A stretch of DNA of 64,000 bases from Sordaria brevicollis (Eukaryota > Ascomycota > Sordariomycetes > Sordariales > Sordariaceae): positions 2,976,001 through 3,040,000 of the forward strand of contig JAUTDP010000006.1 in NCBI GenBank assembly GCA_033439795.1. The letters are read 5' to 3'. Both the position numbers and the translations under genes were made by a program. The first letter of the stretch is position 1, and each line of letters begins with the position of its first letter. The notes below the pieces were generated by a model. That model did no database searches. It saw only the letters and a list, made by a program, of their open reading frames with translations, and had not been told where the DNA came from. This document shows, in pieces, positions 1,070-52,567 of the stretch.

Positions 1070-3225
1070 ATGGATCGCGTACCCTCGGACTATCTACCAG
1101 ATGATTCCGACTGGACCTGGACAAGGTTTCCAAATGAGATATTGCAGACGCAATGCAAGAGGCGCGGCCTTTCCGCATATGGCGACAGAAAGGCTCTGCA
1201 GCAACGACTGCTTGACCATAAGCAGGCCAACGTCATCATTCCTAGGAAAGGGCCTTGGCTTATGAGGCCCTACACCGGCGAGAACCAGGATTTACACTGG
1301 CAGTGGAGGTCGCGAAAGCACTTCATCAGCCATGTCAAAGACAAAAGCGACGCCCAAGTTGGTCTGCGAAAGATCTTTACTGTCGCGACTAGAGATCAAA
1401 ACGGTGACTACGTACCTGAGCGCCCTCTTGGGACTGTCACCTTTGACCGCAATCCGGCCTGTACCTGTGTCGGCGGCGTAAGTCTACCTCCCTCCCAACG
1501 TACAGAGCCCTGAAAGACTAACCCCCAAACAGAGTATTCGAGAAAAACCTTGCAGTCATTGGCTTTGTTGGTTACAATTCTTTTGTTATCTTCCCTAGGG
1601 ACAATCACCAAACGAGGATTAGCCAGCTAACTAGATCGTCCACAGATGTCCTCCGCAATGTTCTCCGCTGCCCCGAGCCGCTTCTATGGCAGCAGTCGTT
1701 CCTCTCTTCCGAGATCGAGCTTATCTACCGCATCAGCCCCGCCACCCGTAGCCGGATACATGATAGCAAATACCGACAAGGCGACTTCTGTTTTGTGTGT
1801 TTCAAGGATGAACATATTGAGGAGCCCATCTGGATCCAGTGCACCGCGTGCGGAATGCCGATGGACACCTGCTGCTACGACAACTTCCTGGAGGCCAGAA
1901 ATGTGCCACCAAAGAAGGAAGGTCAATGCATCGTCTGCCTTGATAAGGCTCACTGGGATGTCGAAAAGTATCGCGAGCAGCACGACAAAGCACACTTGGA
2001 TAATACCGGCAAATCCAAAGTCACAGCCACGGCTCCTGGGCCAGTCGAAAGCCACGTCTACTCGACAATCGAGGCGGAAATACCCAAATCTGCCAGTCCT
2101 AGCCGCTCGAGTTCACCCCATCTGAGCTATAAGGATGATAGTGGCTCCAACTGGTCAGACTGTGAAGAAGATTGCGGCAGCAGTCGCCGTCGGGGCAAGA
2201 AACCGAACAAAGCCATGAATGCAAAGAAGAATGCCACGGCCTCTCCTTGTCTCCCTCTCCGCTGTCAACCTACCGCCAAAGCTACACACTCAATTGTTTT
2301 CGAGAGCATTCATGCAAGCCCAGCGTCGCCTACTAGGCCTGTTAATGGGTATGGAACAAGCATGGTTCAGGTGACAGTCCCGGGCGGCCCAGCGAACTAT
2401 CGTTTGGAAAAACATCCAGACGAACAACCCCAAGGAAGAGACAAGCAACAACAGCAGCAGCACCAAGTACGACCAGCTCTTCCCGTCATTCGCACCGTGA
2501 GGGAATCGATACTCCCAGATCTTCACCCTAACCAGAGCAAGGAAATGGAGGTCATCGAACTTGACGATACGATATCGGTTATATCTATTTCCTCCGATTG
2601 CGACTCTGTCTATGACCCTGCTACGTCTGTACCTTCTCAAGACCGGGTACCCGCTTCTGCCCCCTTTGTTGCTTCTAATTTCATCCCTGTTCAAGATCTC
2701 ACCACACCTCCTGCTGTTGACGTCCAACAGCCCGTCTATTCACCTTCTCCTTCGGCTTCTGGTGGACCCGCTGACGAGATCATCGTCGAAACACAAGCTG
2801 GCAGCGCATCCGACAACGAGAATAGTGTCACTAGTAGTGGTTTCCTAGCCTCTACTATTCGAGCCTGGTCGGCAGTCGTAGGAGGTTCACGCCCTCAAGG
2901 ACCCGTAAACCTGAACGATGGGCGAGAAGGAGTTGTAGACTGTTATGGCGGAGATGTCAATAATGATGCTGTTGACAACGGACCCAGCCCAGATTGGGAC
3001 AGTGACACAATAATTGTGAAGAAGAAGAAGAAGACAGACAACAGCCACAATGACGGGGCCGTCAAAAGAAAGGTGAAGGAAACGCAAGAACTTGAGGGAC
3101 GCTCAAAGAGACAAAGAACAAACAAGGAGTCCCGGCACAAGATTCGGAGGCCTCAGTCTAAGAAGGGAGGAAAGTTGAGAGGCGTGGTGAGAGGGCAGAA
3201 AGTCGTGGAGGATCGTGAAGAGTGA
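1070..3225 (+). CDS. SAP-SWIM-PHD-like zinc-finger protein, paralogue 1
   Basis: Spliced gene with exons 1070-1477, 1533-1566 and 1646-3225, encoding 673 aa. Residues 7-50 resemble a SAP helix pair and begin with the family signature YLPDD. The SWIM zinc finger is C131-x-C133 at the end of exon 1 plus C143-x-H145 in the 34-nt exon 2; exon 3 then continues YVLRNVLRCPEPLLWQ. A PHD-like finger follows (C196/C199, C213/C216, D221, C224, C242/C245). Its usual histidine is Asp221, so zinc binding there may be weakened. The tail is low-complexity and ends in a strongly basic, NLS-like stretch, without the coiled coil of paralogues 2-7. Introns have phases 0 and 1, as in the other copies. SAP domains generally bind DNA; the role of this protein is unknown. 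Confidence 0.85.
2551..2600 (+). other. Candidate SUMO-interacting motif cluster (in paralogue 1)
   Basis: The encoded segment VIELDDTISVISISSD has two hydrophobic beta-strand cores (VIEL, ISVISI) next to acidic and serine residues, as in SUMO-interacting motifs. A further IIVET core next to an acidic stretch lies near 2780. This is motif resemblance only. Confidence 0.3.
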
Positions 3226-3934
3226 GCAGTACATTTGGAGGTCATGTTGTGAAGAATAGTTGATCAGCCGGGATGTCGTATTTCCTTGTGTCATTTCCTT
3301 TCTCTTTTCCTTACTCTCCTGTTTTTCTTCGTTTTCCTTGCTACTTGTGTTGGATATTTCCTTTTGGTTGTGGTTCAGCAACCGACTTGAGTTGCTATTA
3401 CACGCCTTGGCCTGATTGTTGAAGGATTGCTAGGACACAGAATCTACGTCGTTTTTGGCTTTGAGCTCTCTGCGCACCTGCTTGCTTTTTTGTCTCGCCG
3501 TTCAACAAGAACATGGCCATTGAGGCGCCATCTCGACTCCATCCGTCCAGCCCCGCCGCTGGCACCATTCACCAAGACCCGGACAGCTGGGACGGAACGG
3601 TGAACACGACCCTTCACTCACGGCGGCCGAGTGACCGATGTGCTTCCAGGACGTTCCCGAAGCCCTGTTGCTTGGGGCACTTGCCGCCCCGGGGGCTGTG
3701 GTAGCTGGTAGTGGTGGCCTGGATGCCCGGTGCTTTGGCGGGCGGGTTCTTTTTCTCTTGCACACAAAAATTTGGCCTTGGTTTCCTTTCCGCCTCCACG
3801 ACCCTATCACACCACGCAACACTTCTGATTTTCACTTTTGGCAACCCGGCGACGGTGCTCACTCATTTCTTGACTGCTTAGGACTTCGAATCCCCAATCT
3901 CATTCTCCTCAAAGCAACCCTTCCAGTCAACAAC
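3226..3934. other. Intergenic between paralogues 1 and 2
   Basis: Holds the 3' region of paralogue 1 (T-rich, about 3280-3400) and the promoter and leader of paralogue 2. Short open frames exist, but none shows family motifs or splice support. Confidence 0.6.
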
Positions 3935-5947
3935 ATGACCATGGAAGCCGCGAAGATCGAGTACTTACCGGACGACGTCAATTGGCGAAAGTATAGGAAT
4001 CTGGAAGTCCTCCAGCGTGAATGCGCCAAACGCTCCATTCCCGTCACTGGAGACAAAGAATGGCTACAATTCAGCCTATCCATGTTCCATGAAGACCACC
4101 CTCCGTCAGAGCCACGGCCGGAGCCCTGGCTGCGCAAGCCACCCGAGCCTTTCTATTCGGATCTCTTGACTGCAGCTCAGATTGAAAAACTTTGGGTTGT
4201 CAAAATCCGAGATCTAACCGGTCAGATCGGAGGTCGCGCCAGGAAGATGGCGTTCTCGATTGTACACGACGACGTCGCCGAGCCTTTCGTTGTCACTTTC
4301 TGTAACCGTCCTACTTGCACCTGCGACTACCTGGTATGTCAACCTTTCCACCTACCTTGCGTGCAGTTGGAGGATTATTGCTAACCAAGCATTACACAGC
4401 CCTACCAGTGTGTTCATATTATGTGTTTGTCACCTCCCCTTCCCTTCCTTACATCAAGACAGCAGCTCACACTGATTTCTAGACGTCATGCGATATGTTC
4501 TCAATGTTCCCGAGCCACTCCTCTGGCAGCGCGCCTTCCTCCGCTCCGAGGTTGTCGGAATATTTCGACGAAGCCACCCGGTTCAGGCTCTTCTCTCGCC
4601 GGAGCAGTACCCCAAACTGCCTGGACTCTGTCCGATTTGCTTCAAGGGAGACGCGGCGCACTTCGGTTGCTTTGCCTGCGGCATTGGCCTGCACGTAGGA
4701 TGCCTCGCAGTCTCTAACAAGCATCGCGGGTTTGTCCCGTTGTGCACGATTTGCAAAGACCGACATCAAGTAAAGAACATGGCCCAGGGAGCGAAAAAGT
4801 CCGAGGCGAGGGCCATTACAGAAGGGCGTACTGTCCCCGATGGAGAGTGGGGTCATGATTCTTCAGAAACTTCCAGCGGATCATCAGAAGAGGAGGGTTC
4901 TAGCGACGAGGAGTCGAGCGAGGAGGCCTCAAGCAATGAAGAGCAGGCCAACATCATCCCTCGCAACGGACGATATGACAACGAAGAGCCCAGGAATGAA
5001 GTGCCCCTCGCGGATGAGGAGCATGGTATCGCCCCCAATCAGCCCGTTGACCAGCTCATTGACCAGCCCGTTGACCAACCCCGACCTATCAACGAGCCCA
5101 TCGGCCAGCGTTCCCGCTCGCCGTCTGTCGCCATTAAGCAAGAGAGGTCCCCTTCTCCTTTTATCCCACAGCTCCCTTTGCCTCCGCGATCTAAGGCAAA
5201 GAAGCCCGCCAGCTCTCCTATACGCAAGCAGCCATCCCGAGCTGCCAAAGATGCCGGGCTACTTCGGCAGAGGCAAAGCCTCAACCCCGCGATCGAAGCT
5301 CCTGCTCCTCCCCCTAGTCGCAGCCCTGGCCGTACCAGGGCTCCTACACTTGCAAAAAGCCGGCCTGCATTTTCCGCACCTCGGATCATCACTCCGGTAC
5401 CGATCCCAGCTATTCCGGCAAATGCCATGTTACTGGCTCAACAACAACAGCAACGGCAACGGGCCCGACAGGTTGTGATTGTGTCAGAGGCTGGAAGTCC
5501 GCAGCTCGCACCCAGCAGCGTCCGCCGTGACGTAGTTCCCCTACACAATCCCGGAGTTCGAGCTTCAGCGACTCCTGCGCCCGACCCTGCTCCTCCTATT
5601 CAAGGCTCTGTCACTCCACTTGCAAGCTCACCTCCCATAACGCGAAGGCCGCCTCCCACCCCCTTGATACCGCTTTCTCTCCGATTTCTGCCCCTACTCC
5701 TCGTTCAGCCTCTCCCGCCCACTCTTCTCTTTCCACCTCGGCAGCTGTCAGTGCTAGCGTCAAGACCAGCAAGGAGAAGAGAAAGGCCATGAAGCTTGCT
5801 AGGAAGCTCAAGCGCCTGGCGAAGAAGTCTGCTGATGTTCGGAAGCATGCGGAGCGGGAGCTGAAGAGGCTCGCGAAGGAGAGTAAGCGGTTGGAGAAGA
5901 AGGTGAAGGCTTTGGCTAAGAAGCATGAGGCGGGTGGTGATGAGTGA
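3935..5947 (+). CDS. SAP-SWIM-PHD-like zinc-finger protein, paralogue 2 (apparent frameshift)
   Basis: Exons 3935-4333, 4400-4424 and 4483 onward. The SAP-like region starts EYLPDDVNW. The SWIM finger is C128-x-C130 (exon 1) plus C137-x-H139 in a 25-nt exon 2; exon 3 opens YVMRYVLNVPEPLLWQ. The PHD-like finger is intact (CPIC...CFAC-x4-H-x2-C...CTIC). A long Ser/Pro-rich tail follows. The frame that carries the finger ends at 5792. The family's C-terminal coiled coil (KAMKLARKLKRLAKKS...) is encoded to a stop at 5945-5947 in a different frame, open from 5531. The shift equals one missing base, most likely near the C5 run at 5659-5663. This could be a sequence error, a real frameshift or an unrecognised intron. 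The start could also be the ATG at 3941. Confidence 0.8.
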
Positions 5948-6792: not shown

Positions 6793-8702
6793 ATGGCGGA
6801 GCACCCCCTCGCCAATAGGCTCCCCGACGACGTTGACTGGAGCGAGTACGACCATTCGGCACTACACGCGCAGTGCGTACTTCGCAATATTGGTGTTGAC
6901 AAAAATGCCAGCTGCGAGAGAATGATGCGCCTTCTGCACGTGTATCGGAAGCATCATACCACTGAAACTAGACTGCTCCCGTGGCGCCTCGACCCAAAAG
7001 ACGCCATATGTGATTATTGGATTGAGTTTCGCGTCCGCACCCTCCATGGTGAATTCAATCTAGCACAGGTCAGGAACATGCGAACCTTAGATGTGATGTG
7101 CTTCTGGAAAGACTTCACCATCTGCGACAAGGAAGGAAGGTCTTGGGTTGTTTCTTTGAAAGCGATCCCGAGTTGTACCTGTTCGCAGGAACCCACGGTA
7201 CGTTGACCTTCCACTTTCCCTTTCGACCTGGGATTCAGGGCTTTTAGCTAACGTCTTGGGTACTTCAGGACCGCTGCGATCACATCTTGTGTCAGTTCTT
7301 CATCCCCGCACCTTCTGTCCAAAGAACCCTCCATGCGCGTACTGACGGCTAAGCGGAAGACCTCTCCTACTATGTTCTCGACATCCCCATGCCATATTTC
7401 TGGCAAGCAGCCTTCTTGCCCTCCGAGCTCGAGTTGATCTACCGGCATAGTCTTCCCCTGCGTGGCTTAAGCATGACTGGCCGGGAAGCCCCGCAGAGAG
7501 TATGTGCTCTATGCTTCACATTTCTGCCTGATTCTGTGTTCTCCTGCTGTCGCAGACCTTTCCATAGGTGCTGCAATGATGCCGTCAAGAAGAAGAGAGT
7601 TCGAAAGCAAGCCAACCGTTGCTGGATTTGCGAGGATACCGCTGAGTGGGAATTCGAAAAATACCACCAAAGAGAGCTGGAACCGACTGCCACGACCACA
7701 AGAGCGCTCAATGCCGGGGACAACACCGTCGCGACTACCACTCCAATGTCACCTGCACCGACAGCAGGGACTGTTGACAAAGGCACCACACGTGAATTCA
7801 CAGAGCGTCATGGCGCAGGGGGTTTGGGTGGCTCCTCCAAAAATCAAGCCCACAGAGGCAAACAAGCCAACAGCACCCGCGAAGTCAACCAGCCTCCTTC
7901 CAATCCTCCACATCCGCATTCCCCTTTCGTCTCATCGACACCCAATGTCCCGCCTGCTCCCCAACCCGCTGTTAACAAGCCAAGTCCTGAGTCCCCTTCT
8001 CGCCCCCAAAGGCCTTCACAGGCGTCCAAGAACGTAACTCCTCAACATAAAGGCTCTGCCTCCCTTTTTTCCACCCCTGGACAGAGCACCACATCTTTTC
8101 CTACGCCCCCAGAGCCAAAACATGACCCTGAGAGAGCTGGTAAATCCAATCATAGCGTCTCCAGTAACTTGAGGTTGGAATCGACTCAGTCTTTGCCCTC
8201 CGATCCCTCGACTCAGTCTCCGATTCCGACCGCCTCTGCCCCTTGTGTTCCAACCTTCGGACAATCCGGGCAGACACCGGCTCCTCTGTCTGAAAGTGTT
8301 GATGCTCAAAGTCCTGCTGCAAGCGTTGTGGTTTCCATTGACCAGGCCGCTACACCAGTTCCAGATGCCCACCGTAGTTCTCCTTTTGGAGTTGTCGATG
8401 GTTCTTCGCTAGGCAATGGCATGAACTCTGATAGCATGAAGCGGAAGGCTGCAAGATTGGTACAGAAATGCCGTCGTCTGGAAAAGGAGTCACTCCGCAT
8501 GGGTAAAGACATGGAGCGCAGGATGCAGGTTATTGACAAAGAGTACAAACAAGAGCTCAAGACACTCAAAGAGAAGCGCAAGATGCTCAAGGAGAAGCGT
8601 AAGAGGAAGTGCATGAAAGCTCAACAGAAGTGGAAGAGTGGGCTCAAGAAACTCGAGCGCAAGAGACAGGACATTGAGCAGAAGCTGAAGGCTTTGGAGT
8701 GA
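6793..8702 (+). CDS. SAP-SWIM-PHD-like zinc-finger protein, paralogue 3
   Basis: Exons 6793-7197, 7269-7290 and 7360-8702 encode 589 aa. The start was chosen at MAEHPLANRLPDD because paralogues 5 and 6 begin MxHPLxGxLPxD; an upstream in-frame ATG at 6745 is less likely. The SWIM finger is C128-x-C130 plus C138-x-H140, the latter on a 22-nt exon. Exon 3 begins YLSYYVLDIPMPYFWQAAF. The PHD-like finger has CALC, a CC pair, then x4-H-x2-C and CWIC. The third ligand is displaced (CC rather than CxxC), so its fold may differ. A Pro/Ser/Thr-rich spacer leads to a long basic coiled coil at the C terminus (about the last 100 residues, rich in KxxLKEKRK). Confidence 0.87.
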
Positions 8703-10395: not shown

Positions 10396-12108
10396 ATGAT
10401 GGTGCGCTCCCTCGTCGGCTGGATTCCCAACGACGCCAACTGGAGGCTTCAGCAGTTCCTCAAAGAGGAACTGGAGAAGCAATGCAAGCTCCGCAACATC
10501 GATACCGATGGATTGTACAAAACTCAACTCCAGGACATCCTCTCATGTTATGGCAAGGGAGACGAGTTCGAGAAAAGAGCTTGGTTCTGGTGCGATCGGC
10601 CTCCCGACTGCGTGGCCGATGCCTATGCCACATCTCTGAAGCTAGCGGAGAGCAAGAGCTTCCAAATCATACAAGTTGAGGATCAGAGCAGCGAGGACCA
10701 AGGCAACTTCGTGAGGAAGTTTACGCTCACCAGCTTTAAAGCTGTTGAGGGGCAGCCTTCGGTATTTAGCGTTTTCTTCGGCAATTACCTGAGGTGTTCA
10801 TGCCGCGGTCCGGTAAGTTGACCATTCTTTGGGCTTTCCCAAGACACATCAAAATCCAGTCCGCTCTAGAACCTTTGCACTAATCCTTCAAATCTTACCT
10901 TGTAGGCTTCTACTCCGTATACGTTTGACATGCAGCATTGTGTCCATACCATCTGTACGTTTCACCACCCCAACCCGACAACCGAGCCATACTACTCTTT
11001 GTCAAAAAATGGGGCAAACAACTAACACAGTCTCACTGCAGACATCATGCGCCACGTCTTAAACTGCCCCGAGATCTATCGTTGGCAGTTCGCCTTCCTG
11101 TCGTCCGAACGAGAATCTCTCCTGCGTCACAGCGCCGCCGCTCGCATAATCAGCAGAACAGGCTGGGACGTCCCGAACTCCCTGTGCACGCTCTGCTTCA
11201 AGAACCTCTACAGGATCCACAAGACATCTCGTGGAACCTGCCAACGGTGCGGAAGGCAGTACCATACTGCTTGCTTTAACGCAGCCAAGCGGGAGAGGGA
11301 ACCAGCCAAAGACGGCGAGTGTTACATGTGCTTAGACAGAGACGAGTGGGGACTCGAGCAATACCGTGAGAAGCCGAATGTTCGGCCGAAGAAGGCTGCT
11401 GCAGCTGACGCTGCCGCAAAGACCATAAAACCAGGAAAGCCAAAGGAGGCGGCGGCGGGAAAAGCTGCCAAGCAAGCCCGGACACGTACGAAGCAAGGTG
11501 CCAATAAGAACAACAACGATACCTCTAAGCCCGATGCTCCTCAAGCTGATGCGGCACAAAGTTCTTCTGACGAAGAAGAAGAAGAAGAAGAAGAAGAAGA
11601 AGAAGAAGAAGAAGAAGAAGAAGAAGAAGAAGAAGAAGAAGAAGAAGAAGAAGAAGAAGAAGAAGAAGAAGAAGAAGACGAAGAAGAAGAAGAAGAAGAA
11701 GAAGAAGAAGAAGAAGAAGACGAAGAAGAAGAAGAAGAAGAAGAAGAAGAAGAAGAAGAAGAAGAAGAGGAAGAGGAAGATGCTGGCACCGCCGCGTCTC
11801 AACAAAAGAGTGCCATGTCCACTATGGATTCCTTCATCTCTGAGATCGAAATAGAAAGCAGAAGATCAGTCAAGCTGGCTCGAAGGTTCAGGGAGCTGTC
11901 AAAGAAGCTGGTTAAAGCCCGGATAGCGGTGGATCGTGAGAATATGAAAATATTCAGGGAGGATGAGAGGATCGACAAGGAGAATGAAAGGATTGACAGG
12001 GAGCTTGACCAAAAGGTTGCCAGGTTAGAAGGGGAAAATACGAAGCTCAAAAGGCGGATCAAGGCGCTGGAGGCTAACAAGCGACGTCGTGCTGATCGTG
12101 GGGTGTAG
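10396..12108 (+). CDS. SAP-SWIM-PHD-like zinc-finger protein with polyglutamate tract, paralogue 4
   Basis: Exons 10396-10812, 10906-10954 and 11042-12108 encode 510 aa. The start is one of two adjacent ATGs (10396 or 10399). The SAP-like region starts GWIPNDANW. The SWIM finger is C134-x-C136 plus C151-x-H153 on a 49-nt exon. The next block reads YIMRHVLNCPEIYRWQFAF. The PHD-like finger is canonical: CTLC, CQRC-x4-H-x2-C, CYMC, then a D..EWGLEQY motif. After an Ala/Lys-rich segment comes a run of about 69 Glu codons with a few Asp. The C-terminal coiled coil carries the family motif RRSVKLARRFRELSKK and further heptads (IDKENERIDREL). The acidic tract between two basic regions resembles histone- or chromatin-binding acidic patches; this is inference. 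Confidence 0.88.
11572..11778 (+). repeat. GAA/GAG trinucleotide repeat (69 codons)
   Basis: Continuous GAA repeat, with a few GAC and GAG interruptions, inside the coding sequence of paralogue 4. All purines lie on the + strand, so the tract can form triplex DNA, and its length is likely to vary between isolates. Frames read across it in other phases give meaningless poly-Lys, poly-Ser or poly-Phe. Confidence 0.97.
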
Positions 12109-12707: not shown

Positions 12708-14813
12708 ATGGCGCATCCGCTCCAGGGGCGCTTACCCGATGACGCGCCTTGGGCCAAATACACCGTAGCTGTGTTGAAAAGAGAATGTGGTAATCGCAAT
12801 CTTCCCAGGTCGGGGACAAAACAGGTCTTGATAGATCGCCTGGTGAGCTACACTGAAGCTCATGCAAGCACGTCGGCGACAAAACGCCACCACCCTTGGT
12901 TGGCTAAGCCTATCTCCGACCTGAGATATACCCTACAGTTTGCGACAGCGATGACTAGCAGGATGCAAATCCTACCCCGATATATTGTTGACGAGCCTGG
13001 TAGCAATGGTGATACCTTGAGACGTATTTTCAAGGTTTACGACCCGGACAATGGTTTACTGGGCAACTCCCACAGCTTGGGGGGGAAGAAATACAAAGTC
13101 TCCATTGGCACTACCCTCAGTTGCGACTGCTCATCCAGTGTATGTTCAATTTGAATTTGATTTCTTCCCAAGAAGAGACCTTGATTAGGATATCGACTAA
13201 CTGTCTTTAGGCTGGCTTTCCCTGCCGTCACGTGTTGTGTTTGTTTAACCCCAAGGTCTCCCTTGTAGAAGCCCGATTGCTCTTCGCTAACCTTTGACAC
13301 ACTTGCCACAGATATCATGAATTTTATTCTCGTTTGCCCGGAGTCTTATCACTTTCAAATAGCTTTTATGCCTTCCGAACTTCGAACGATCTTTCAACAT
13401 AGCCGCCTTAACCGGATACTTGGTGGAACACCGCAAGAGTCCCAGGCCTTCATCTGCCACCTGTGTTTCCGAGATACTGACCACGGGACGGAACCTCCGA
13501 TTTATTGCAAGGAGTGTAAGCGAGGAGTGCATTCCAAATGCAACCTAGAGGCAGACTTCGGCATTCGCAGCACAACCGGGGGCGGGGCCACTTGCTTGGC
13601 TTGCGACAACGAGCTCGATTGGGACGTCGAGAATTTCGGTTGGAAGGATCGGGTGTTACCTATTGATCCTAACACAACATCTGTTCTACCCGCGCAGGCT
13701 GGACAGAATCCAGGTGCTATTCAAGAGGGAATCCAGGGAGGAAAGCCAGAGGACGAGAATGCCAACCAGATCCAGAGCACCAAACCTGGCGTTTCATCTA
13801 GCTCGTCCTCCTCATCTGCCTTCTCCGAACAAACCCAACATCTACCAGACACCGTCAATCATCAAGAATCTTCTCCTGCTCAATCTAGTAGAGAGATCAC
13901 ACAAACAGATAACTCTGGGCAACATCCGGGTAACCCGGCGCTTATCGAGAAGGAGATGCACCAGCAGCACGAGCGCGAGCAGCAACAAGTTGACAAAGCA
14001 CAACAACCAGTTGCTCTCCTAGAGCCCGCTGCCAACTTGGGTGATGTCTTGTCCAAAACGCCTCACGAGGGAGGTCAAGACACACAGGCTACTACTTTCG
14101 ACAATGCTGCAAAGCCTCATATTTCTGCTCAAGCATCCTCCTCAAGTTCCCAGGACCTTACCACCACCGCGAGCACCGTTACACCTCAGCTCAACCAAAC
14201 CGACGCCACCTCAACAACTCCTGCTGCCGACGCCTCGGTCGCAGACAGCGTTCCCCAGAGCCAAAGCCCTCAAGTCGACGCTACAACTCCAGCTGCCGAC
14301 CAGCCTGCGGCAGCTACCGACGCTCAGGTCGCTGCCAACACTCTGTCTAGCAACAACTCCATAGTCGCCTCTACACCCGTTCCGCCCAATCACTCAGCTT
14401 CCTCTCCCAGTTCCACACCTGCCCCCTCTGCTACCTCCTCTCAGATCAATACTATCGACAAGAACACCAAAGCACTGGCTCTCGTCCAAGAATGCAGCCG
14501 CCTGGCAAAGGAATCCGTTGAGATCCGGAAGAAGTCGGAGCGCGAGGCCAAAAGGACAGAGAAGAAGTACTGGCGGCAACTAAAGAAGATGATTAAGACC
14601 ACAAAGGCGGAGAGGAAGAAGCACAGACAGGAGCTGAACAGAATCAAGACGGAGAGGAAGAAGCTCAGACAGAAGCTCAAGAGGAGCAAGAGGAAGAGTC
14701 AGCAGGAGATCAAGGAGCTTGAGAAGAGGATTGAGAGCTTGGAGAAGGAGATATTGAAGGCTTTGGGGAGTCCGGCCCCGGAGGTGGACATGGCGGAGGG
14801 TGATGCTGCTTGA
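12708..14813 (+). CDS. SAP-SWIM-PHD-like zinc-finger protein, paralogue 5
   Basis: Exons 12708-13139, 13211-13238 and 13312-14813 encode 653 aa. It begins MAHPLQGRLPDDAPW, and residues about 8-50 give the clearest SAP match in the array (AVLKRECGNRNLPRSG followed by K..LIDRL). The SWIM finger is C139-x-C141 plus C149-x-H151 on a 28-nt exon. Exon 3 opens YIMNFILVCPESYHFQIAF. The PHD-like finger is CHLC, CKEC-x4-H-x2-C, CLAC. The following 300 residues are Ser/Thr/Gln/Pro-rich and probably disordered. The C terminus is a long basic coiled coil that starts with the family motif ECSRLAKESVEIRKKSE. It is closest to paralogue 6 in start, SAP region and coil, which suggests a local duplication. Confidence 0.88.
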
Positions 14814-15608: not shown

Positions 15609-17611
15609 ATGTCGCATCCTCTTGAGGGGTGGTTGCCGAATGACGCGCGATGGTCAACGCTTCCCATAGATGATTTGAGAAAGCAATGCGCCGCTCGCAA
15701 TCTCCCCGATACCGGTCCAAGAGCGAGCCTTCTTCAACAACTCTTGACGTACAGGCAAGCGCACCCAAACATTAAGCGACATCACCGTTGGCAGGACGAG
15801 CCCCCATCGTATCGCGAGACCGCGTCGACCGCGGAAACCACGAGGTTTGAGCTGGCAAGGGTTGTCGACAAGCCCCTTCGCAAAGAAGGCTGCTTCCAGA
15901 GGAACTTCCGGATATGTGACGGTCGAGTATGGAAGAGACACGTTACCGTTTCCATTGGCACTGTGCTCAAATGCTCTTGTTACTCACTGGTAAGGCCCTT
16001 CGGCCCCCCCAAATCGCCTTTCTCGGCAAGTGACACCTTGGTCGGGTCATCCACTGACTTTTTTCTAGTTCAATCAGCCTTGTGAGCACCAGATCTGTTA
16101 GTCCTCACCTGAAACTTATCTCCCCATCGTTTCTGCTGTCATTTTCTAACGGGTCCCATACAGACGTTCTACGAGATGTACTCAACTGCCCGGAGCCTTA
16201 TTGCTGGCAAAAGGCTTTGCTGCCTTCGGAGCTTCAAGCAATCTACCAGAATAGCCACGCTATCCGCTTCTTCGGCCCAGAGGGGATCCCCTACATCAGT
16301 CCCGAGATGCCAGGCCATGAGGATGAGTTGTGCGTCTGCTGTTTCCGACCCATCAGATTCAACCGATTATACCCATTTGGGGTGACGACCGGCTGTAAGA
16401 AGTGCAAGAAACCAATCCATCAATCATGCAGCGACAACGTCAAAGAGGTGAGAACCCCAAAGAAACGCGATGTTTGTTGGATTTGTTACGAGGATGGAAA
16501 TTGGACCATCGAGAAGTTCGGTTGCCCTGGTGGGGCTAGAGATATGCCTGACTCTGCTCCCCACGGCGCCGCACTTGCTGTGCACACGCAAGTTGGGCCA
16601 CCCCTGGATGTTGTCGGCGACTCCATCGAGCGTGAAGGACTGGATGCCGATGAGCCTCAAGGCTCAAACTCCTCGAAAGACGAAGACTCTGAAGAGGAAG
16701 ATCCCAGCAACAATCAAAGAACCAACGAGCCCGGCCAGCTTCTTTCGTCGTCGCCATTATCTTCTCCTAAAGCCTCCTTATCCCCAGTCGACCAGGAAGT
16801 GCCATCTTCCCCTATACGCCGTCAACAGCCACCCCGAGAAAGCAAGACGAACTGGAAAGCCTTTCGGCTCATTGGTGAGGAACAAGGGGCATTGGCCAAC
16901 TTCGTTTCAAGCAACAATGCACCCCTCTCACTTCCAGGTAACCCAGCGCTTATTTGGAAGGCAATGCAAGAGGAGCGCGGGCGCGAGCAGCAACAGGGGA
17001 CAAAAGAGAAAAAACAGCTTGCCGTCCCCAAACCATCTTCACAGGCTCATTCCCTGCCTACTACGACTCCCGATGAAGCTGAGAGACGAGAAGACATCAT
17101 CGTTTTCAGAAACAATCTCACCAGCGATCCCGTCGAACAACATTCGTGTGCCAACACATCCACTACAAGCACCGAGACTCTTGCTATCACAGCTACAGAG
17201 CCAGATGCTAGCACTGCCGATGATCATCAGACCAGCGACACTCCTGCCGAGGAGCCTACCACAGTTCCTTCAACAGCTGTCCAGTCCCATCTTGTCGATC
17301 CCACCTCCGCCGACACGCAAGCATCTTCCCCAAATCCTTTACAAGGCAAGGTTGAAGTTAATAACACCATTGAAGCAGTGGAGCTCGCCCAGAAGTGCAT
17401 CCTGTTGGCAAAGGAGTCCGTTCAGGCCCGGAAGAAGTCGGAGCATGAAGCCGAGAAGATGAAGAAAAGGCATAAGAGGGAGCTGAAGAAGATCAAGAAG
17501 AGGAATAAGCAGGAGGTTAAGCGGCTTGAGAAGAAGATTGAGGGCTTGGAGAAGGAGGTCCTGAAGATCTTGGGGGGACCGAGGGTTGCCGCGAAGGATA
17601 ATGGTGCGTGA
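15609..17611 (+). CDS. SAP-SWIM-PHD-like zinc-finger protein, paralogue 6
   Basis: Exons 15609-15989, 16069-16096 and 16164-17611 encode 618 aa. It begins MSHPLEGWLPNDARW with a clear SAP-like motif (DDLRKQCAARNLPDTG). The SWIM finger is C122-x-C124 plus C132-x-H134 on a 28-nt exon. Exon 3 reads YVLRDVLNCPEPYCWQKALLPSEL. The PHD-like finger has a longer first loop: CVCC, then CKKC-x4-H-x2-C, then CWIC, and the trailing W..EKFG motif. An acidic/Ser-rich tail ends in a Lys/Glu coiled coil with the family motif LLAKESVQARKKSE. It is the last member before the decayed transposon; its stop lies only about 130 bp from the transposon's target-site duplication. Confidence 0.88.
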
Positions 17612-17751: not shown

Positions 17752-20700
17752 CAGCGCTGTAAACAAATCAAATCAAGTCAAGTAGGCCTCTTCAACTTAA
17801 TTGAGTGGGTCTAGAAAAATCTAATATTTATTTACTTAATAATTTGGCAAGTTTGGTCAAATAGAGAATAATAGTTTTTTATAATTTTTAGAGTATTGAA
17901 TGCCTTTTTTTTTATTCTTTTTATTTATAATATTTCCTAAAGCCTTCCTTTACTTTCCCTATGCCTTTATCCCTAACTTTGTCGTCGTCGTCGTCGTTAA
18001 ATATTATTTATATCCTCCCTATCGAATTCGGCCGTTATTTAATACTTTACGGTTTTGATTATATAGATAGAGTTAGTTGCTAGATTCTATTTTTGGCTAA
18101 TAACGGTTAATTTAGTATTATTAAATAAGTATTTATAATTATTTATTATTGAAGGTATAAATAAGTAATTAAATACTATATAACGAAAGTAAGGGTAATT
18201 ACTTTCGTTAGCCTTTTATTATATTAGCGGATTATTTATAATATAAATATCCTTAATGAGGTAACGCTATAGTTTATCTTCCTTTTTTAGGTATAATAGG
18301 AGGGTATTATAGAAATTAGGGTCGATTAACTAATCTTCGTTGGCTTAACGAATTTATTAATTATTAGTATTAATTAGCGGGTTATTATTAAATAATTAAT
18401 TAATATATTTAGAATTATATAAAAATTTGAAATCGTTTATAATTTTTTTATACTTTTAATTATTAAAGTATTTAATTACTTATTTAGTATAATAATTAAA
18501 GTGAAGGATAGTAATAATTTAATACGCGGGGTTTTCTTTTATTAAATTATAATACAATTCGAACTTTGTAATAACCCGGTTTAATATTATATTAATATAT
18601 TCTATACTTTTATTAATTAAATTATTTTCGTAATTAATAGGAGGAAGTAAGTAGTTAATTTAAATCGAATTGGTTATTAACGATAATAAAGGTTAGGCGG
18701 TAATAATTCGAATATAATAATAGGGTTAAATATTAATTATAATATTAAATTTTAATATTTTTAATCCTTCGAAGGTATCGAATACGAATTCACTATTAAA
18801 ATATATACGCTTTTCTTTAAATACGTTAATAAAGTAATAAAAATTAGGGATAATAATTATAAATAATAACCTACGGGTTTTAAACTTTTTAATAAAGTCC
18901 TTAAAATATTATATTATATTTATAATAAAAGTAAAAATCCTTTAATTATCGCTATTTAATTAATCCTCTTTAGGAAGCCTCTTTAAAGATTTTAGGTAAT
19001 TAATAACTTTATTAATATAATAGTCGATATATTTACGAAATTTCTAAGCGCGGCGTATTATACGGTAATTAGAATTTTAATATATTTAATTATTAAAAAT
19101 AATATTAATATTAAAAGAGTAGTCCTTATTTACGTATTAATTAAAAAGGGTAGGGAGGTCGTTATTAATATTAATATAATTAATAAATTTAATAATTTTT
19201 TAAAACCTTTTATAATTTTAAGGATTACGGCGGATAAATTAAACGATATTATAAAATTTATTAATAGGACCCTATTTATACTATTCCTAAATTATTATAT
19301 TTTTTTAAATAATAGAAAAATAAATAATAAAATTAAATATTACGGTAATATCCCCTCTATCCCCTACTTTATTAGTAAGGGCGGTAATAATAATTATAAT
19401 AATTTTCTTATTGGGTTTAATTATAATTTTCGCGCTAAAATTAAAAATATAATTAAAATAGCGTAAACGACGGTAAGGAAATTCGATTTTAATTTTTAAT
19501 TATATTATAATAGGGAATAATCCCTTTAATATATAAATAATATATTAATCATTAAAATTAACGTTATTATATTAAAATAATTAATATATTCGCCTTTAAA
19601 TTCGTATATATTAAATACGTATAGGATAATAACCGCAACGTTCTCTTTATTATAATTATTAAAAATTTAAAAAAGATTAATAAAATTATTTTTAAGGGTT
19701 TTAATTATATTTATATAATAAAAAAAAATAAATAAGATAATTAGACCGTTAGGAAAGGTCTAAAAATCGAAGGAAACGTATTTTTTATAATAAAATTCGG
19801 TAAAATAAATTTTAAAACGTTCGAAGTAATACGTTTATTTATTCTCAATTTAAATATATAATATATAGCGCGATTAGGGGAATAATTTATTAATTATATT
19901 ATAATTTATTAACGATAAGAGACTTCGAAATGCCTTATTTTCGATAAAAAAATATAGGAGCTGAATATTAATAATTATTTCTATTATTAATTCGCGGAAA
20001 ATTTTACTAATAGGCTTAATAATAATAGTAAATAATATTTAGAATTATTTAACGATTGACTTTATTTTTTTAAATTCGGGCTCCTCCGCGCCGTTATTAC
20101 GGAGAAGTTCTTTAATTTTATAAATACGACGGAAATAGATTAGCGAAAACGAAATAGCGAATAAAGAGTAAATTTTATAATATAAATTATAATATTAAAA
20201 GCTATTCAATTCGTACTTACCCGAAACGTAGATTAAATAAATATTATATTCGCCGATTTATAAAATTCTTTTAAATTTTCTAATTAATTAATTTTCGAAG
20301 ATATATTAATCTTTCTTTTAAGTAATTCGTAATATATAGAAGATATTTTTAAATAAATTATTAGGATAAATTTCTTTTAAAATTTAGATTTATTATATAA
20401 AAGGGATATAATATTTCTTATTAAATATTTTTATAGTTCGAATATAGGTTATTATATTATTGAAAGAGATAAATAGTATAATAGCGGCGGTAAAGGAAGT
20501 TTTAGGATCGGTAACGACGGGTATTTTAATAACGGTAGCGAATTATATTAATAACGCTAAATAATAGTTAATATTAATCCGCAATAGGGAGGGGAAAGAT
20601 TAATAAATATCGCGGGTATTTATTAAATTAAAAAAATTCGATTTTGGGGTTTAGCGATATAACGTTGAAGAAACGTAATAATTAAAAATAATATTCGAAA

Positions 20701-21034
20701 AAAATCTAATAATTGAAAAATCTAATATTCGAGAAAAAATCTAATATTTTAGAAAAAATTTCGAAATTTATACGTTGCAATTAGGAATTATATTAATAGA
20801 TAGTAAGTTGGGGGGACTTTGGGGGACTTCGAGGGCCGATAGTAATTATTTTTAATAGTTAAAATCTATTGGTTTTTTTAATTATAACCCTAACCCTACG
20901 ATATAGTAAGTAGGGTAAGTAAGTTAAGTTGGGGTTTTAAATTTGATTGATAATAGGGAGATCCTTTACTTGATTACTTACTTGCCTAATTTACTTGATT
21001 TGGACCTACCCTACTTGATTTGTCTACAGCGCTG
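17752..21034. mobile_element. RIP-mutated hAT-like DNA transposon (3,283 bp)
   Basis: The ends are imperfect inverted repeats starting CAGCGCTGTA(A/G)ACAAATC, with subterminal ATCAAGTA motifs on both sides. The exact 8-bp duplication GTCCTAGA flanks them. Together with CAG-type termini this indicates the hAT superfamily. The interior (about 17800-20950) is extremely AT-rich. On reading, CpA and TpG are almost absent, TpA is abundant and CpG persists, which is the signature of RIP (C-to-T preferentially at CpA). No open frame of useful length survives, so any transposase is destroyed. In Neurospora such blocks are usually methylated heterochromatin (family knowledge). It splits the zinc-finger array between paralogues 6 and 7. 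Confidence 0.85.
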
Positions 21035-24997: not shown

Positions 24998-26209
24998 ATG
25001 GATCGTACTATCGACAGTCCCCTCTCCTCGTACATCGCCGACGACGCGCCTTGGGGCGCCTACCCTCTTGAGGTGCTCCAAGAGCAGTGCCTCAAACGAA
25101 CTCTCTCTTCGAAAGGCGACGCGACCGAGTTGCGCTTGCGACTCGAAGATTACCACCTCCAGCACAAGCGCGAGGAGCGCGACCATTTTCCGTGGCGCGC
25201 AGCAAAGGACATGATTTACGTCCAATACGAGATGGCAGGGCAGGGGTACAATCCTTTGTTGCTGAAAGTGCGCGACCGAAGCGACTTTCTCCGGGGAAGG
25301 ATCGAGAAAGACTTTACTCTCGTCGTAAAATCCCTGGATCCTGGGATGTATTCTTGGTGCAACGTCACCATCGGAAGGAATCCGACGTGTGACTGTACTT
25401 TAAAGGTAAGTAGTAGTTGACTCTATCCCTCGTTGGCTTTGCAGGTGATTACAGACTAATTTCTAACCATTTCACTGTGCACGCAGAACGCTGAATCGGA
25501 AGACGGGTACGCGGACTACACCTGCCCGCACATCATCTACGTCCTCAAGTACATCCTCGGCTGCCCAGAGCCTTTGCGCCTCCAAGGCGCCTTTCTCACT
25601 GACGAGCTGGTCAAAATCTTCCAGCACAGCACCGTCTTTGACCTGATGGAGCGCTACGTCGTTCCTCAGTTAAATCCCAACACAGCAACGCAACGTCCGC
25701 GCCTCAAATTCGAACCCAGACACATCGACCGTCCGGCACAGACCTGCACTCTGTGCTTCCGCTTCATTTACTTGGGAGACAAGGTCAAGTTCTGCCATCG
25801 TTGCGGGCTGCCTGTCCACCTTGAGTGTCGCCAGCATTTGCAAGATCATCGGAAGGGTACGGGGAGGAAATCGTGCTCGCTACACCACGACTTCAACGAG
25901 TGGACCTACGAGCTTCTTGTGGCGCGTAAGAAACAGGGCTCGTCCTTGTATCACTTCCGTGGTCAGGGGGCTGAGGCTCTTGAGGGCGGGTTCAAACAGG
26001 AGTCGGACGACGTTGACATGGAGGACGCTTTTGGCGACGACTTTTGGCTTGAGGGCAACGAGCTTGACGTGGATGATGGCTCGGATTTGGAGATCGACGA
26101 TGATGACAGCGAACATCAAGTCGTTAACGATTACGCTGTCGCTGGCAACGACCAGCTGGAGATGACTCTTGCCATCAGACCTCGCCGGTCTGTTGAAGAC
26201 CACGAGTAG
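24998..26209 (+). CDS. SAP-SWIM-PHD-like zinc-finger protein, paralogue 8 (short, intron 2 lost)
   Basis: Two exons, 24998-25405 and 25487-26209, encode 376 aa. The SAP-like region begins YIADDAPWGAY. The SWIM finger is C131-x-C133 at the end of exon 1, and C149-x-H151 lies in exon 2, which runs on without a second intron into YVLKYILGCPEPLRLQGAF. The PHD-like finger is CTLC, CHRC-x4-H-x2-C, then CSLH, so the eighth ligand is His instead of Cys. After the finger the protein has only an acidic tail (DDVDMEDAFGDDFW...), and the coiled coil is missing. It contains FKQES, a SUMO-consensus site followed by acidic residues. It groups with paralogue 9 by its lost intron and its YILGCPEPLR sequence. 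Confidence 0.87.
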
Positions 26210-29930: not shown

Positions 29931-31431
29931 ATGCCACTCCCATGGTTGCAGGATGTCGATCCTGCTGAGCTGCTGCCCGATGACACAAAGTGGGAGGACT
30001 ACGACGAGTTTACTCTGTGGAAGCAGTGCAAGCTCCGTGGTCTTGATGGTCTGGTGAGAAAAGACGGGGACGCTCTTCGGTTGCTGAACGATTTGAACAG
30101 GCCCTTCGAAGTAACCTGGCTATGTTATGTAAGATCAACAGACCCCAAAGGAGTTGAGGTCTCAAATGAAGCGGCCAACGAGAAGGCGTTGGCGTGGTTG
30201 ATTGAGGCTACCGGAAGGCAGACCTTCCAAATCCTTGGAGTTGAGGAACACAGGTCAAATGAAGGTTCCCCAGAGATGGTGATCGAAATGTCAGACGCTA
30301 CTGTCACCTTGTACCAGACCAAAAAGTGTAACTGTGCTTTCATTGTAAGTCGCCACTCTAAGCCACGCTGTACATTGTCATAAACATAGCTGACGTTGGA
30401 GGCAAATAGTTTTGGGTTGGCATGAAAACTTGCAGGCATATACTTTGTCAGTGCCTCCAAAATAACCTGTTCCGGATTCAGATTTGCTGACTTTGACAGT
30501 TGCAGACCTGGAAGTCCATGTTTTGAGATGTTCAAAGCGCCTGCACTCAGCAAACTTCATCTATCAATCTGACTTTAAGGAGTATTTCGCTAATGCACCG
30601 CCTGCGTTCCGGCCGAAGGGGCTCCTTGGAGATCAATACTTCAACGATCCGGTGTCTGGTAGGAAATGCCAGCTCTGTTTCAAGACAGTCGAACACACAG
30701 CCGCTGGCGACATTAAAAGATGTCAAGTTTGTTGCCGTGTTGCGCATCAGCAATGTCATAAAGTTTATCTTGCCCGCAAAGCAGTCTGCGAAGGAGATAC
30801 TGGATGCCCTCTGTGTTGCCCTCGTTGCCCTTGGAACCCCAGCAACCGAGAACTAAAAGCCGAACCACATTCATTGACGACCAAAGAGGAATCGACACCT
30901 CCAGATGTAAAGTCAGAGACTATTGAAGATGATACGTTGGCAGCAACGGAGAGAAAGAATTGGGTGTTGGAGAAGAAGATCCGCAAGCCCCGAGGCCAGC
31001 TCCATGGCCAGCGCCGTCGGAAGTCGGCCAGTCGTACGATGACTGACCGACAGTACAAGAGACTGATCGCCAAGGTAGGGGGAAGGGTCGGAAGACGTCG
31101 GAACAAGGAGACGGCGTGCAAGATACATTCTCCCACAAAAGACGAACCGGGCGCCAAGGAAGAAACCCCAAAACATATGCTCCAGGATCAAGAGACACGG
31201 GTGGACGAGACTGTGAAGGAGGGAAAGTGTGTCAAAGTCAAGGAGGAATCAAGGGCCAAGGATGAGAGACCAACCGATATCTCCCAAAAACCGAGAGCAT
31301 CGGTGGAGCAGACGGCGAAGGAGGAGAAGCCGGCCAAGATGAAGGAAGAATTGGAGCCAGAGGTGGAATTTGTCAAGATCGAGCCGAGAGCCAAAGTCAA
31401 GTCTGAAGCTGTGGTGATAAGCCTGCTCTGA
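29931..31431 (+). CDS. SAP-SWIM-PHD-like zinc-finger protein, paralogue 10
   Basis: Exons 29931-30344, 30410-30446 and 30506-31431 encode 458 aa. It begins MPLPWLQDVDPAELLPDD and shares LWKQCKLRGL with paralogue 11. The SWIM finger is C133-x-C135 plus C146-x-H148 on a 37-nt exon. Exon 3 lacks the PEP..WQ motif of the + strand relatives (YLEVHVLRCSKRLHSANF) but has YFANAPPAF, again shared with paralogue 11. The PHD-like finger is CQLC, CQVC-x4-H-x2-C, CPLC, with an extra CPRCPW. The tail is Lys/Glu-rich and contains several SUMO-consensus-like sites (VKSE twice) and repeated VKEE/AKEE segments instead of a coiled coil. Paralogues 10 and 11 are the closest pair and lie in opposite orientation around the sulfur genes. 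Confidence 0.87.
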
Positions 31432-39555: not shown

Positions 39556-40637
39556 TCACTCTTGTTCCTCTTTCTCGACCCCATCACACTTCCTATTCTT
39601 TGCTCCCAGTGAGCCGTTAACAACGGCAGCTGAGAGTCCCTCAGGCGACGGGAGTTCTCGCTTGACTGCTGCTGGAATGACTTCCGGTTCAACATTTTCT
39701 CGTGTACGAGTCCAGGGACACTCGGGGCACCACAGTGGACATGGGTCTCCTTCACGCGCTGCTTTGCGAGCAATGCAGATGAGATGGCATATCTGGTGCG
39801 CCCCTCGGTTGCAGGCTTCGCATCGAACAATGTCGCGGTTGTCATCCACCACTTTGAAACAGAGCTGGCACTCCCTGTTGTCGAGTGTGTGGCCCGGGCC
39901 TTGTTCTCTTCCCAGGCAGCGGGGCGCGAAGGCAAACGGTGCGTTCGCAAAGTATTGCTGCAGCTCTGGGGGATCGACGCCATCTTTTCGCTGAAAGCGC
40001 TCTGGACACTTCAAGGCAAATTGTTCCACGTCTGAAAGCGCCAAGGATCAGTGATGACTTGTCAACGGCGGAGGGTTCCGGAAGCCACTGACAGAGAATA
40101 TGAGGGCAGGTGATAAAATACGTTGAAATGCGGAACTGTTTTCAGTTTGGCGTCCATGTCAGCCCCATGTGCAAGAACTGCTCCTCGACTCCCAGGCCGA
40201 GAACTCACTTTGAAATTGCAATTGCACCTTTTTAACCACCCAATTGAGGTAATGGCATCAGACATCTCAATTATCATCTCCGGTCCGATAATATCTCTGG
40301 TAGGGCCCTCCTTAACGTGGAGGACCTGCATGTTTTGCGTGCTGACGTGCTTGATCAGTGCAGCCATTGCTTTTTCTTCGGCCAGTGGCTTCGGGAGGTC
40401 AACACCACCAATCTGCGTGGCTTCAAGTTCGAGATTGCAGCACCACATCACCTCAAGATTCTTCAGCTCGTTCAGAGTCTTGAGTGCATCTCCTGGGTTT
40501 TTCACGCAATCTTCCAATCCACGCAGCTTACATTGCTTCCACAAGGCAACCTCATTATACGTGAACTTTTCCCACTCCGTATCGTCAGGCAACTTTTCCG
40601 ACGGGTCTACCTTGGGTAGTAGCCACGGGAAGGACAT
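39556..40637 (-). CDS. SAP-SWIM-PHD-like zinc-finger protein, paralogue 11
   Basis: Minus-strand exons 40637-40209, 40135-40093 and 40031-39556 encode 315 aa. It begins MSFPWLLPKVDPSEKLPDD and contains LWKQCKLRGL like paralogue 10. The SWIM finger is C138-x-C140 plus C153-x-H155 on a 43-nt exon. Exon 3 has YFANAPFAF, then the PHD-like finger CQLC, CEAC-x4-H-x2-C, CPLW-CPECPW. The short tail holds VKRELPSP, an exact match to the phosphorylation-dependent sumoylation pattern PsiKxExxSP. There is no coiled coil. It is the inverted partner of paralogue 10, and both are separated from the rest of the array by the sulfur genes. Confidence 0.87.
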
Positions 40638-41971: not shown

Positions 41972-43151
41972 TCACTCGAACCTGCGAGTTATTCTGTAGT
42001 ATACCTTTTTCAGTTTCTCTTCAAGAGGCTCTTCCTCCGGGTCCCTTGGCTCAGCGTCCCCTAACAATGAAGGCCCACGTGCTTCCGTCCACTCCTCCCA
42101 AATTTCTCTATTTTCGCATACGGCGCATCTCGCCCCATCAGCTCTGGACCGCTCCAAGCGTGTTGTCATTGGCCCGTTATCCGTATCTGGCGGTAGGTCG
42201 CAAGAGCTAAAATGAATCAATTGCCCACATCCAGAGCATGGACAGTAAACCCCCTCCTTTATTGTTCGGAAACATCGGAGGCAAACCAAATGATTGTCCT
42301 GCTCAAACTTCATGTCGTAGACAATCTCGGAGGCTTGCTGCGGGACTCGGTCTAGCACTCTGCGCCAGTCTGCATCTGGCAATCTGGAAATCCTGAGAGC
42401 CTGAGCGGGGTATGAATGGACAAAAAGGTCGTCGTATTCCTGTCGGGTGAAAGCGTCGTGTATGGGGAGGTCACCGCTGGGACAATTGAGGACATATTCT
42501 AGAACATCTGTTGCAGCAACACTTGCGTGAGTTTTTCGCTGAATTTCTATCGCAGTTCAACATTTCCTGCATGTGGCGCGAGGGAAGACTCACAAACAAT
42601 ATGTTCGCACTAAAACATACGTTCCCCCTACATATGGTTCACCGAATCAGGAAAAGTCTGCCACAGAGAGGGTGGCGACCGCGGGAACTGACCTTGTAGA
42701 ACTGGCACAGACAAGTACAGCCCTTCAACCCAATCCGTACCCAGGTTTCCTTCATACCATCAACTCTTCCACCTCTATCCCGAGGTCCGATTCCGATGTG
42801 AAAGAGCCTCGTCAAGCGCTCTGGGTCAGTGGCATGGCGAGAGGCGCTCACCCTCAAGAGAGTCATGGAAATTCCCCCTACTTCCAGTAAGAGACCAACA
42901 TAAGCGTCCGCGTTTCTGTCATCATACGAGTTGGACGAAGTGGAATCGCGGTAGGGCAGACCGCGGTGCTTCAACAGCTGATTTAAAAGTGCCCGCGGCT
43001 CCTTAGCGGCCCCCCAGATTTCCCGTGTTGGAAGGCCCAAACTGTCGCAGGTTCTCCTGACGGTATTCACATCCTCCGCGGACATGCCGCGCAACGTTCT
43101 GACATCATCTGGGAGCCATCCCGAGGGAAGGCGATTCCACCGAAACGGCAT
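41972..43151 (-). CDS. SAP-SWIM-PHD-like zinc-finger protein, paralogue 12 (16-nt micro-exon)
   Basis: Minus-strand exons 43151-42693, 42609-42594 and 42507-41972 encode 336 aa. The N terminus carries GWLPDDVRTLRG, then a weaker SAP-like segment. The SWIM finger is C145-x-C147 plus C154-x-H156. Exon 2 is only 16 nt and encodes CEHIV plus one base of a Tyr codon, flanked by a TTTTAG acceptor and a GTGAGT donor. Exon 3 opens YVLEYVLNCPSGDL. The PHD-like finger is CLRC, CSGC-x4-H-x3-C, CAVC, followed by the family's IWEEW motif. The tail is short and acidic with no coiled coil. It is the most diverged member, at the outer end of the array. Confidence 0.85.
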
Positions 43152-52532: not shown

Positions 52533-52567
52533 TGAAAGTGGAGATAAAGATATTGATGATGGAGAAG

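What the first reader, a model, noticed from the sequence alone, without database searches (positions are those of the whole stretch)
1070..43151. Twelve-member array of a SAP-SWIM-PHD-like zinc-finger family
Twelve genes in 42 kb share SAP-like start, SWIM finger (CxC...CxH), a [NG]CPEP..WQ.AF block and a PHD-like C4HC3 finger, ten of them head-to-tail on +. I know of no described system with this domain order. A DNA-binding-like domain combined with two zinc modules suggests a chromatin or ubiquitin/SUMO-linked protein family undergoing local expansion and diversification.
Basis: partly seen in the sequence, partly recalled or inferred. Interest (0 to 1): 0.92.

Follow-up and report, generated by a model that had tools for sequence, protein, structure and literature searches.

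The report
SAP-tethered SWIM-RING-derived gene array
In the fungus Sordaria brevicollis twelve neighbouring, strongly diverged genes are predicted to encode proteins with a SAP-like start, a SWIM zinc-binding motif and a RING/PHD-like finger, in the same order as the SWIM-RING part of the human ubiquitin ligase MEKK1; they are likely DNA-tethered regulators derived from a ubiquitin ligase, and some copies have probably lost ligase activity.

Summary
Twelve paralogous genes lie at 1070-43151, ten on + and two on -; all twelve give intact spliced reading frames. Twenty of 21 introns carry a branch site, and one public gene model equals mine letter for letter. Three more copies on the same contig make at least 15 over about 83 kb. 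The host is Sordaria brevicollis; all 20 named relatives are Sordariaceae.

SAP and SWIM are supported. The "CPEP..WQ.AF block" is the helical linker, and the C4HC3 finger sits in the RING place, of a known SWIM-RING module: the family profile's best solved structure is "MEKK1 SWIM and RING Domains" (E 4.1e-10, collinear), and a SWIM-RING gene without detected SAP elsewhere in the genome bridges the two. The finger alone reads PHD-like, yet 0 of 12 keep the RING E2-contact tryptophan and 0 of 12 the PHD tryptophan.

Most likely: SAP-tethered proteins built on a ubiquitin-ligase module, some copies non-catalytic. Ligase activity is inferred and untested. New variant of a known kind.

The parts
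1070..3225 (+). g01: exons 1070-1477, 1533-1566, 1646-3225; 673 aa; SAP-like, SWIM (CTC..CSH), linker, finger (H replaced by D, as in Neurospora P0009 and copy o3)
3935..5792 (+). g02: exons 3935-4333, 4400-4424, 4483-5792; 577 aa as modelled; the conserved basic helical tail lies in another frame (5531-5944), so a further tail intron or a frame change is possible
6793..8702 (+). g03: exons 6793-7197, 7269-7290, 7360-8702; 589 aa; finger with displaced third Cys; intron 2 acceptor is the unusual ...GGAAG
10396..12108 (+). g04: exons 10396-10812, 10906-10954, 11042-12108; 510 aa; long Glu runs in the tail
12708..14813 (+). g05: exons 12708-13139, 13211-13238, 13312-14813; 653 aa; SAP and SWIM both above Pfam cut-off
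15609..17611 (+). g06: exons 15609-15989, 16069-16096, 16164-17611; 618 aa
21833..23541 (+). g07: exons 21833-22220, 22295-23541; 544 aa; CxC and CxH on one exon; groups with Neurospora and Pseudoneurospora proteins
24998..26209 (+). g08: exons 24998-25405, 25487-26209; 376 aa; identical to public model P0018
27884..28713 (+). g09: exons 27884-28273, 28339-28713; 254 aa; degenerate finger, no tail
29931..31431 (+). g10: exons 29931-30344, 30410-30446, 30506-31431; 458 aa; most RING-like finger (CPLC, Tyr in place of the E2-contact Trp); psiKxE-rich tail
39556..40637 (-). g11: exons 40637-40209, 40135-40093, 40031-39556; 315 aa; closest window relative of g10 (43% identity)
41972..43151 (-). 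g12: exons 43151-42693, 42609-42594, 42507-41972; 336 aa; longest branch in the tree
18001..21000 (.). AT-rich island (GC 0.19-0.24) with RIP-type dinucleotide indices, between g06 and g07; not a family member

Best explanation
The array encodes a diverged family of predicted proteins in which a SAP-like domain precedes a module matching, in order and by profile, the SWIM-linker-RING unit of the ubiquitin ligase MEKK1, so the proteins are likely DNA-tethered ubiquitin-ligase-type regulators, and some copies have probably lost catalysis. Predicted working: SAP would hold the protein on A/T-rich DNA or chromatin (recalled property of SAP domains); the long C-terminal helix of the longer copies (predicted for a Copromyces relative, pLDDT about 95) would pair the proteins; SWIM would recognise the client, as a paper title reports for MEKK1 and c-Jun; the finger would recruit an E2 where its contact residues survive (best in g10 and g11) and elsewhere act as a binding-only finger. 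Shown: exon anatomy with intact frames, domain order, homology of the module, and array and copy number. Inferred: DNA binding, dimerisation, client binding and any ubiquitin transfer.
Against: 0 of 12 fingers keep the Trp that MEKK1 and the C2 gene have after the sixth ligand, 2 of 12 keep CPxC, 8 of 12 keep Ile/Leu at the MEKK1 Ile440 place. The finger alone is closest to PHD fingers (KMT2C 3.5e-5, KAT6A 5.9e-5); MEKK1 is not among the 60 of 98 hits shown, and on its own the finger scores only E 1.3 against the MEKK1 stretch. Foldseek on the finger model gives nothing below E 0.001, and a PHD ranks first. Four of 12 fingers have altered ligands. Pfam detects SAP in only 4 and SWIM in only 1 of 12. 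No expression or biochemical data.
Confidence: 0.5

Rival explanations
1. The finger has become a working PHD-type reader: the proteins are DNA-tethered chromatin readers or scaffolds with no ubiquitin role.
For: Finger-only profile hits PHD fingers first; C3-x2-C4 spacing in 10 of 12 as in PHD (recalled), where MEKK1 and the C2 gene have x3; E2-contact Trp lost in 12 of 12; best Foldseek hit is a PHD.
Against: The PHD tryptophan two residues before the seventh ligand is absent in 12 of 12; the whole module is collinear with SWIM-RING; Foldseek E-values are not significant and RINGs are interleaved with PHDs; Pfam PHD stays below its cut-off.
Confidence: 0.3
2. A rapidly evolving, lineage-specific family used in self/non-self or mating interactions, like other lineage-specific gene clusters of Neurospora, whatever its biochemistry.
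For: All 20 named relatives are Sordariaceae; g07-related proteins of Neurospora species share only about 55-77% identity; lineage-specific Neurospora genes cluster with HET-domain genes (abstract of PMC10684091).
Against: No HET domain among 29 single-exon ORFs chosen by length in the window and its flanks; no population data; the low identities may partly mix paralogs or faulty gene models.
Confidence: 0.12
3. A SUMO-pathway family (PIAS/SIZ-like ligase or SUMO-targeted ubiquitin ligase).
For: SAP plus RING-type finger resembles SAP-containing SUMO ligases (recalled); the g10 tail has 5 psiKxE sites against 0.86 expected, and relatives P0019, P0021, P0028 and P0031 likewise (relatives, so not independent); the tail end VKSE[PA]V[VA]ISLL is shared by g10, P0019, P0020, P0021, P0029 and P0031.
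Against: No PINIT or MIZ/SP-RING match in 12 of 12 N-terminal parts or 10 last exons at E<=0.05; over the 9 window tails counted (g09, g11, g12 have none long enough) SIM-like motifs are 4 against 5.1 expected and psiKxE 9 against 5.0, 5 of them in g10.
Confidence: 0.06

Closest known systems
MAP3K1/MEKK1 SWIM-RING (PDB 9p40)
   Same: Order SWIM, helical linker, C4HC3 finger; profile match over the whole module, E 4.1e-10
   Different: No kinase match; SAP in front and long helix behind; E2-contact Trp lost, C3-x2-C4 in 10 of 12 instead of x3
SWIM-RING gene of the same genome, G000:C2:671422-672237 (L032:5422-6237)
   Same: SWIM, linker and finger collinear, hhalign E 5.7e-15
   Different: On another contig; no SAP match in the 271-aa ORF scanned (an upstream exon is not excluded); keeps the RING Trp and CPxC
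PIAS/SIZ SUMO ligases (recalled)
   Same: N-terminal SAP and a RING-type finger in one protein
   Different: No PINIT and no MIZ/SP-RING match; SWIM instead
PHD fingers of KMT2C, KAT6A and DPF2
   Same: Finger-only profile matches, best 3.5e-5
   Different: PHD tryptophan absent in 12 of 12; the finger sits in the RING place behind a SWIM domain

Membership tests
SWIM domain proteins | CxC-xn-CxH ligands followed by the SWIM helix | tested here: met
   Ligands invariant in 12 of 12 spliced models; Pfam SWIM above cut-off in g05 only
SAP domain proteins | SAP helix-extended loop-helix | tested here: met
SWIM-RING module of MEKK1 type | Collinear SWIM, helical linker and C4HC3 finger | tested here: met
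   (sequence profiles; the structure route was uninformative)
RING E3 ubiquitin ligases | E2-contact residues: Ile/Leu in the first CxxC, Trp after the sixth ligand, Pro in the last CPxC | tested here: not met
   8, 0 and 2 of 12; positions from MEKK1 as printed; the role of Trp and Pro is recalled, that of Ile440 is
RING E3 ubiquitin ligases | Ubiquitin transfer | not testable with these tools
   Needs biochemistry
PHD fingers | C4HC3 with Trp two residues before the seventh ligand (recalled) | tested here: not met
   C4HC3 complete in 8 of 12, Trp or other aromatic in 0 of 12; Pfam PHD below cut-off where shown
PIAS/SIZ SUMO ligases | PINIT and MIZ/SP-RING domains | tested here: not met
   No match at E<=0.05 in 12 of 12 N-terminal parts and 10 last exons
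ZSWIM2/MEX | SWIM followed by RING, ZZ and a second RING (recalled) | tested here: not met
   No ZZ or second RING match at E<=0.05 in 12 N-terminal parts, 10 last exons (g09 and g11 not given) or eight homologs scanned whole

The most novel reading that the evidence does not exclude
A ubiquitin-ligase module caught turning into a reader: in Sordariaceae a SWIM-RING gene gained a SAP domain, multiplied into an array of at least fifteen genes, lost the E2-contact tryptophan and took on PHD spacing, giving a repertoire of DNA-tethered proteins that runs from near-RING (g10/g11) through PHD-like to ligand-losing decoys (g09), each tuned to a different client.
Probability: 0.25. Interest if true: 0.75.

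Novelty: new variant of a known kind. Interest (0 to 1): 0.5.

Why it matters
It links an unnamed fungal gene family to a solved ubiquitin-ligase module and so makes it testable. It is a family of at least fifteen copies in a genome with RIP marks, where close duplicates are expected to be mutated (recalled): by blastn the 12 window copies share only 60-176 bp patches at 70-79% DNA identity. It also suggests why the architecture was easy to miss: of 16 homologs checked, 12 lack an intact CxC..CxH, although for two of them, g07 and g12, the DNA encodes it. If the RING-to-PHD-like drift is real, it is a natural series for asking how a ligase finger loses E2 binding.

Tried and rejected
Chance or artefact: rejected by 12 intact frames, intron signals and cross-genus groups. 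PIAS/SIZ and ZSWIM2 membership: rejected on Pfam. A SUMO role for the whole family: motif counts are not clearly above shuffles except in the g10 lineage. Whole-model Foldseek gave no hit below E 0.001; the SAP part matched SAP structures, the strand region matched NUDIX-type sheets weakly; 9p40 did not appear among the rows shown, so the structural route neither supports nor excludes the MEKK1 reading. The second model (g07 linker plus finger, mean pLDDT 71.8) gave mixed PHD and RING hits, none significant. Pfam SWIM on the whole genome in six frames found nothing at E<=0.001; introns split the domain and most copies score low. NCBIfam found nothing. Pfam also gives weak C1 matches on the finger (4 of 12, best 8.3e-4, below cut-off), read as generic zinc-finger similarity, and weak coiled-coil-type matches on the g05 tail. 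The protein searches need shared 5-residue words, and one search scored only the 7993 candidates sharing most words, so relatives outside Sordariaceae are not excluded. The tree has long branches (g12, g03, C2 copy) and the tool warned that the g10 group may be falsely drawn to the outgroup. The AF2 SWIM region has low confidence (pLDDT 46-54), so zinc geometry was not tested. For g02 four possible tail introns were listed by script and none was chosen.
Full report
Where it is. The window is G000:C24:2976001-3040000 of a 53-Mb, 27-contig genome. C24 is 3,528,139 bases long, the same length as the contig of Sordaria brevicollis protein P0001, which equals g07 apart from stretches that its gene model leaves out; the host is therefore taken to be Sordaria brevicollis (Sordariaceae).

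What is there. Stop-to-stop ORFs compared with each other form two main linked sets, first exons and last exons, in the same order along the DNA. Reading the stretches between them gave 12 spliced models, all open from ATG to stop. The typical gene has exon 1 (SAP-like part, beta-strand region, SWIM CxC), a micro-exon of 16-49 nt with SWIM CxH (9 of 12 genes), and a last exon (linker helices, finger, tail). An intron at the first place (phase 0) is present in 11 of 12 and at the second place (phase 1) in 10 of 12; 20 of 21 introns carry a CTRAY branch site in place (background 9.8%), and 20 of 21 a GTNNGY donor. g07 lacks intron 1 and g08 and g09 lack intron 2, so the joined reading is visible in plain DNA. 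P0018 is identical to g08; Copromyces P0010 is a public full-length relative with CxC, CxH, linker, finger and tail.

How many. Four own-genome searches (g05, g07, g10, g12 as queries) found three more copies on the same contig: 2936362-2937171 (-), 2946320-2947048 (-, public P0008) and 2973299-2974181 (+), each with the SWIM ligands. That is 15 over 2,936,362-3,019,151. There is one SWIM-RING gene without detected SAP on C2, a 34-residue fragment on C1 (E 6.7e-4) and a stop-bearing trace on C5 (E 0.083); a SAP-only match on C22 (E 0.195) is not counted. Counts are lower bounds by the tool's own statement.

Domains. Pfam at E<=0.05 on the 12 N-terminal parts: SAP in 4 (best 2.1e-10), C1_1 in 4, PHD in 3, Prok-RING_1 in 2, SWIM in 1 (20.1 bits, cut-off 19.6). 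The ligands are better kept than the domain scores suggest: CxC and CxH are invariant in 12. Ten last exons scanned whole show no kinase, ZZ or second RING. AF2 of P0010 gives SAP helices, three strands before the SWIM ligands, finger pLDDT about 73-85 and a long terminal helix at about 95, but the SWIM loop is poor.

The key comparison. The C2 gene matches MEKK1 (1.2e-10) and the family (5.7e-15); its own Pfam RING and SWIM scores lie just below cut-off. Splitting the score shows that SWIM plus linker carries most of it and the finger less: 52.4 and 17.9 bits to C2, 21.2 and 11.8 to MEKK1; jointly 76.0 and 40.4. The MAP3K1 finger is called a PHD motif in the literature yet was modelled on a RING; it is reported as an E3, inactivated by Cys438Ala and Ile440Ala (passages of PMC4356348). 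That its SWIM domain is a substrate receptor for c-Jun I saw only as a title in reference lists.

Against a plain ligase reading. In the finger alignment the Trp after the sixth ligand, present in MEKK1 and the C2 gene, is kept in 0 of 12 (g10 has Tyr, g01 Phe); CPxC in 2 of 12 (g10, g11); Ile/Leu at the Ile440 place in 8 of 12. C3-x2-C4 spacing in 10 of 12 differs from x3 in MEKK1 and C2. Eight of 12 have all eight ligands. The finger-only profile prefers PHD fingers (3.5e-5), with MEKK1 outside the 60 of 98 rows shown, and the finger model's Foldseek list mixes PHD and RING without significance. The canonical PHD Trp is also missing in 12 of 12. So the module is of SWIM-RING descent, while the finger is a diverged C4HC3 finger that passes neither hallmark test. 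I commit to ligase-derived, DNA-tethered regulators, with catalysis likeliest in g10/g11 and doubtful elsewhere.

Evolution. Three searches returned 31 distinct proteins; 20 carry organism names and all are Sordariaceae: Sordaria 6, Neurospora 11, Pseudoneurospora 1, Copromyces 2; 11 are unnamed (families). Cross-genus groups g01/P0009, g07/P0002-P0003-P0006-P0007 and g10-g11/P0019-P0020-P0021 indicate that several duplications predate the genera (25 rows, long-branch caveats). Pairs of family members share a contig length, hence probably a contig, in Copromyces (P0010, P0020), N. crassa (P0006, P0021; P0004, P0031), N. tetraspora (P0012, P0028) and Neurospora sp. IMI 360204 (P0002, P0009), so the clustering is likely old; P0019 of the last lies on another, short contig. 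An AT-rich RIP-type island at 18001-21000 interrupts the array while the 12 coding sequences show no RIP signature; copies share only short DNA patches at 70-79%.

Public models. Of 16 homologs checked for an intact CxC..CxH, four have it (P0008, P0010, P0014, P0018) and twelve do not (P0001-P0007, P0009, P0015, P0019-P0021). For g07 (P0001) and g12 (P0015) the DNA does encode it, so those models skip it; for the Neurospora, Pseudoneurospora and Copromyces models the DNA was not seen, so a real loss is not excluded, nor are exon-skipping isoforms.

In print. Searches for 'SAP domain' with 'SWIM' and 'Neurospora', 'SAP domain' with 'SWIM domain' and a ZSWIM2/RING/fungi set (listing seen) returned no paper on such a family; the library holds open-licence papers only. 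PMC10684091 on lineage-specific Neurospora genes has no mention of SAP domain, SWIM or PHD in its main text.

Noticed in passing
18001-21000: AT-rich island (GC 0.19-0.24) with RIP-type indices between g06 and g07; similar AT-rich stretches lie at L027 about 2-6 kb and L031 about 5-10 kb.
   Followed up: partly
44964-46693 (-): Asd-4-like and GATA zinc-finger domains: probable counterpart of the ascus-development factor ASD-4, about 2 kb right of the array.
   Followed up: partly
L030:332-2323 (+), C24:2966332-2968323: ORF with a weak IBR match (2.9e-4, below cut-off) about 5 kb left of copy o3: possibly another ubiquitin-ligase type gene by the array.
   Followed up: no
56925-63975 and L031:3-4304: DUF3176, berberine-bridge-type oxidase, thioesterase, AMP-binding/PP-binding and MFS genes in a row: may be a small secondary-metabolism cluster.
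   Followed up: no
30506-31431 (g10 tail): psiKxE sites enriched (5 against 0.86 expected) and a conserved end VKSE[PA]V[VA]ISLL in relatives: candidate SUMO site next to a SUMO-binding-like end.
   Followed up: partly
11042-12108 (g04 tail): Runs of glutamate, the longest 35 in a row.
   Followed up: no
52294-52734: Short internally repeated stretch (several overlapping ORF fragments match each other).
   Followed up: no
21833-23541, 41972-43151: Public models P0001 and P0015 of g07 and g12 skip the SWIM ligands that the DNA encodes; misannotation is likely, exon-skipping isoforms are not excluded.
   Followed up: partly
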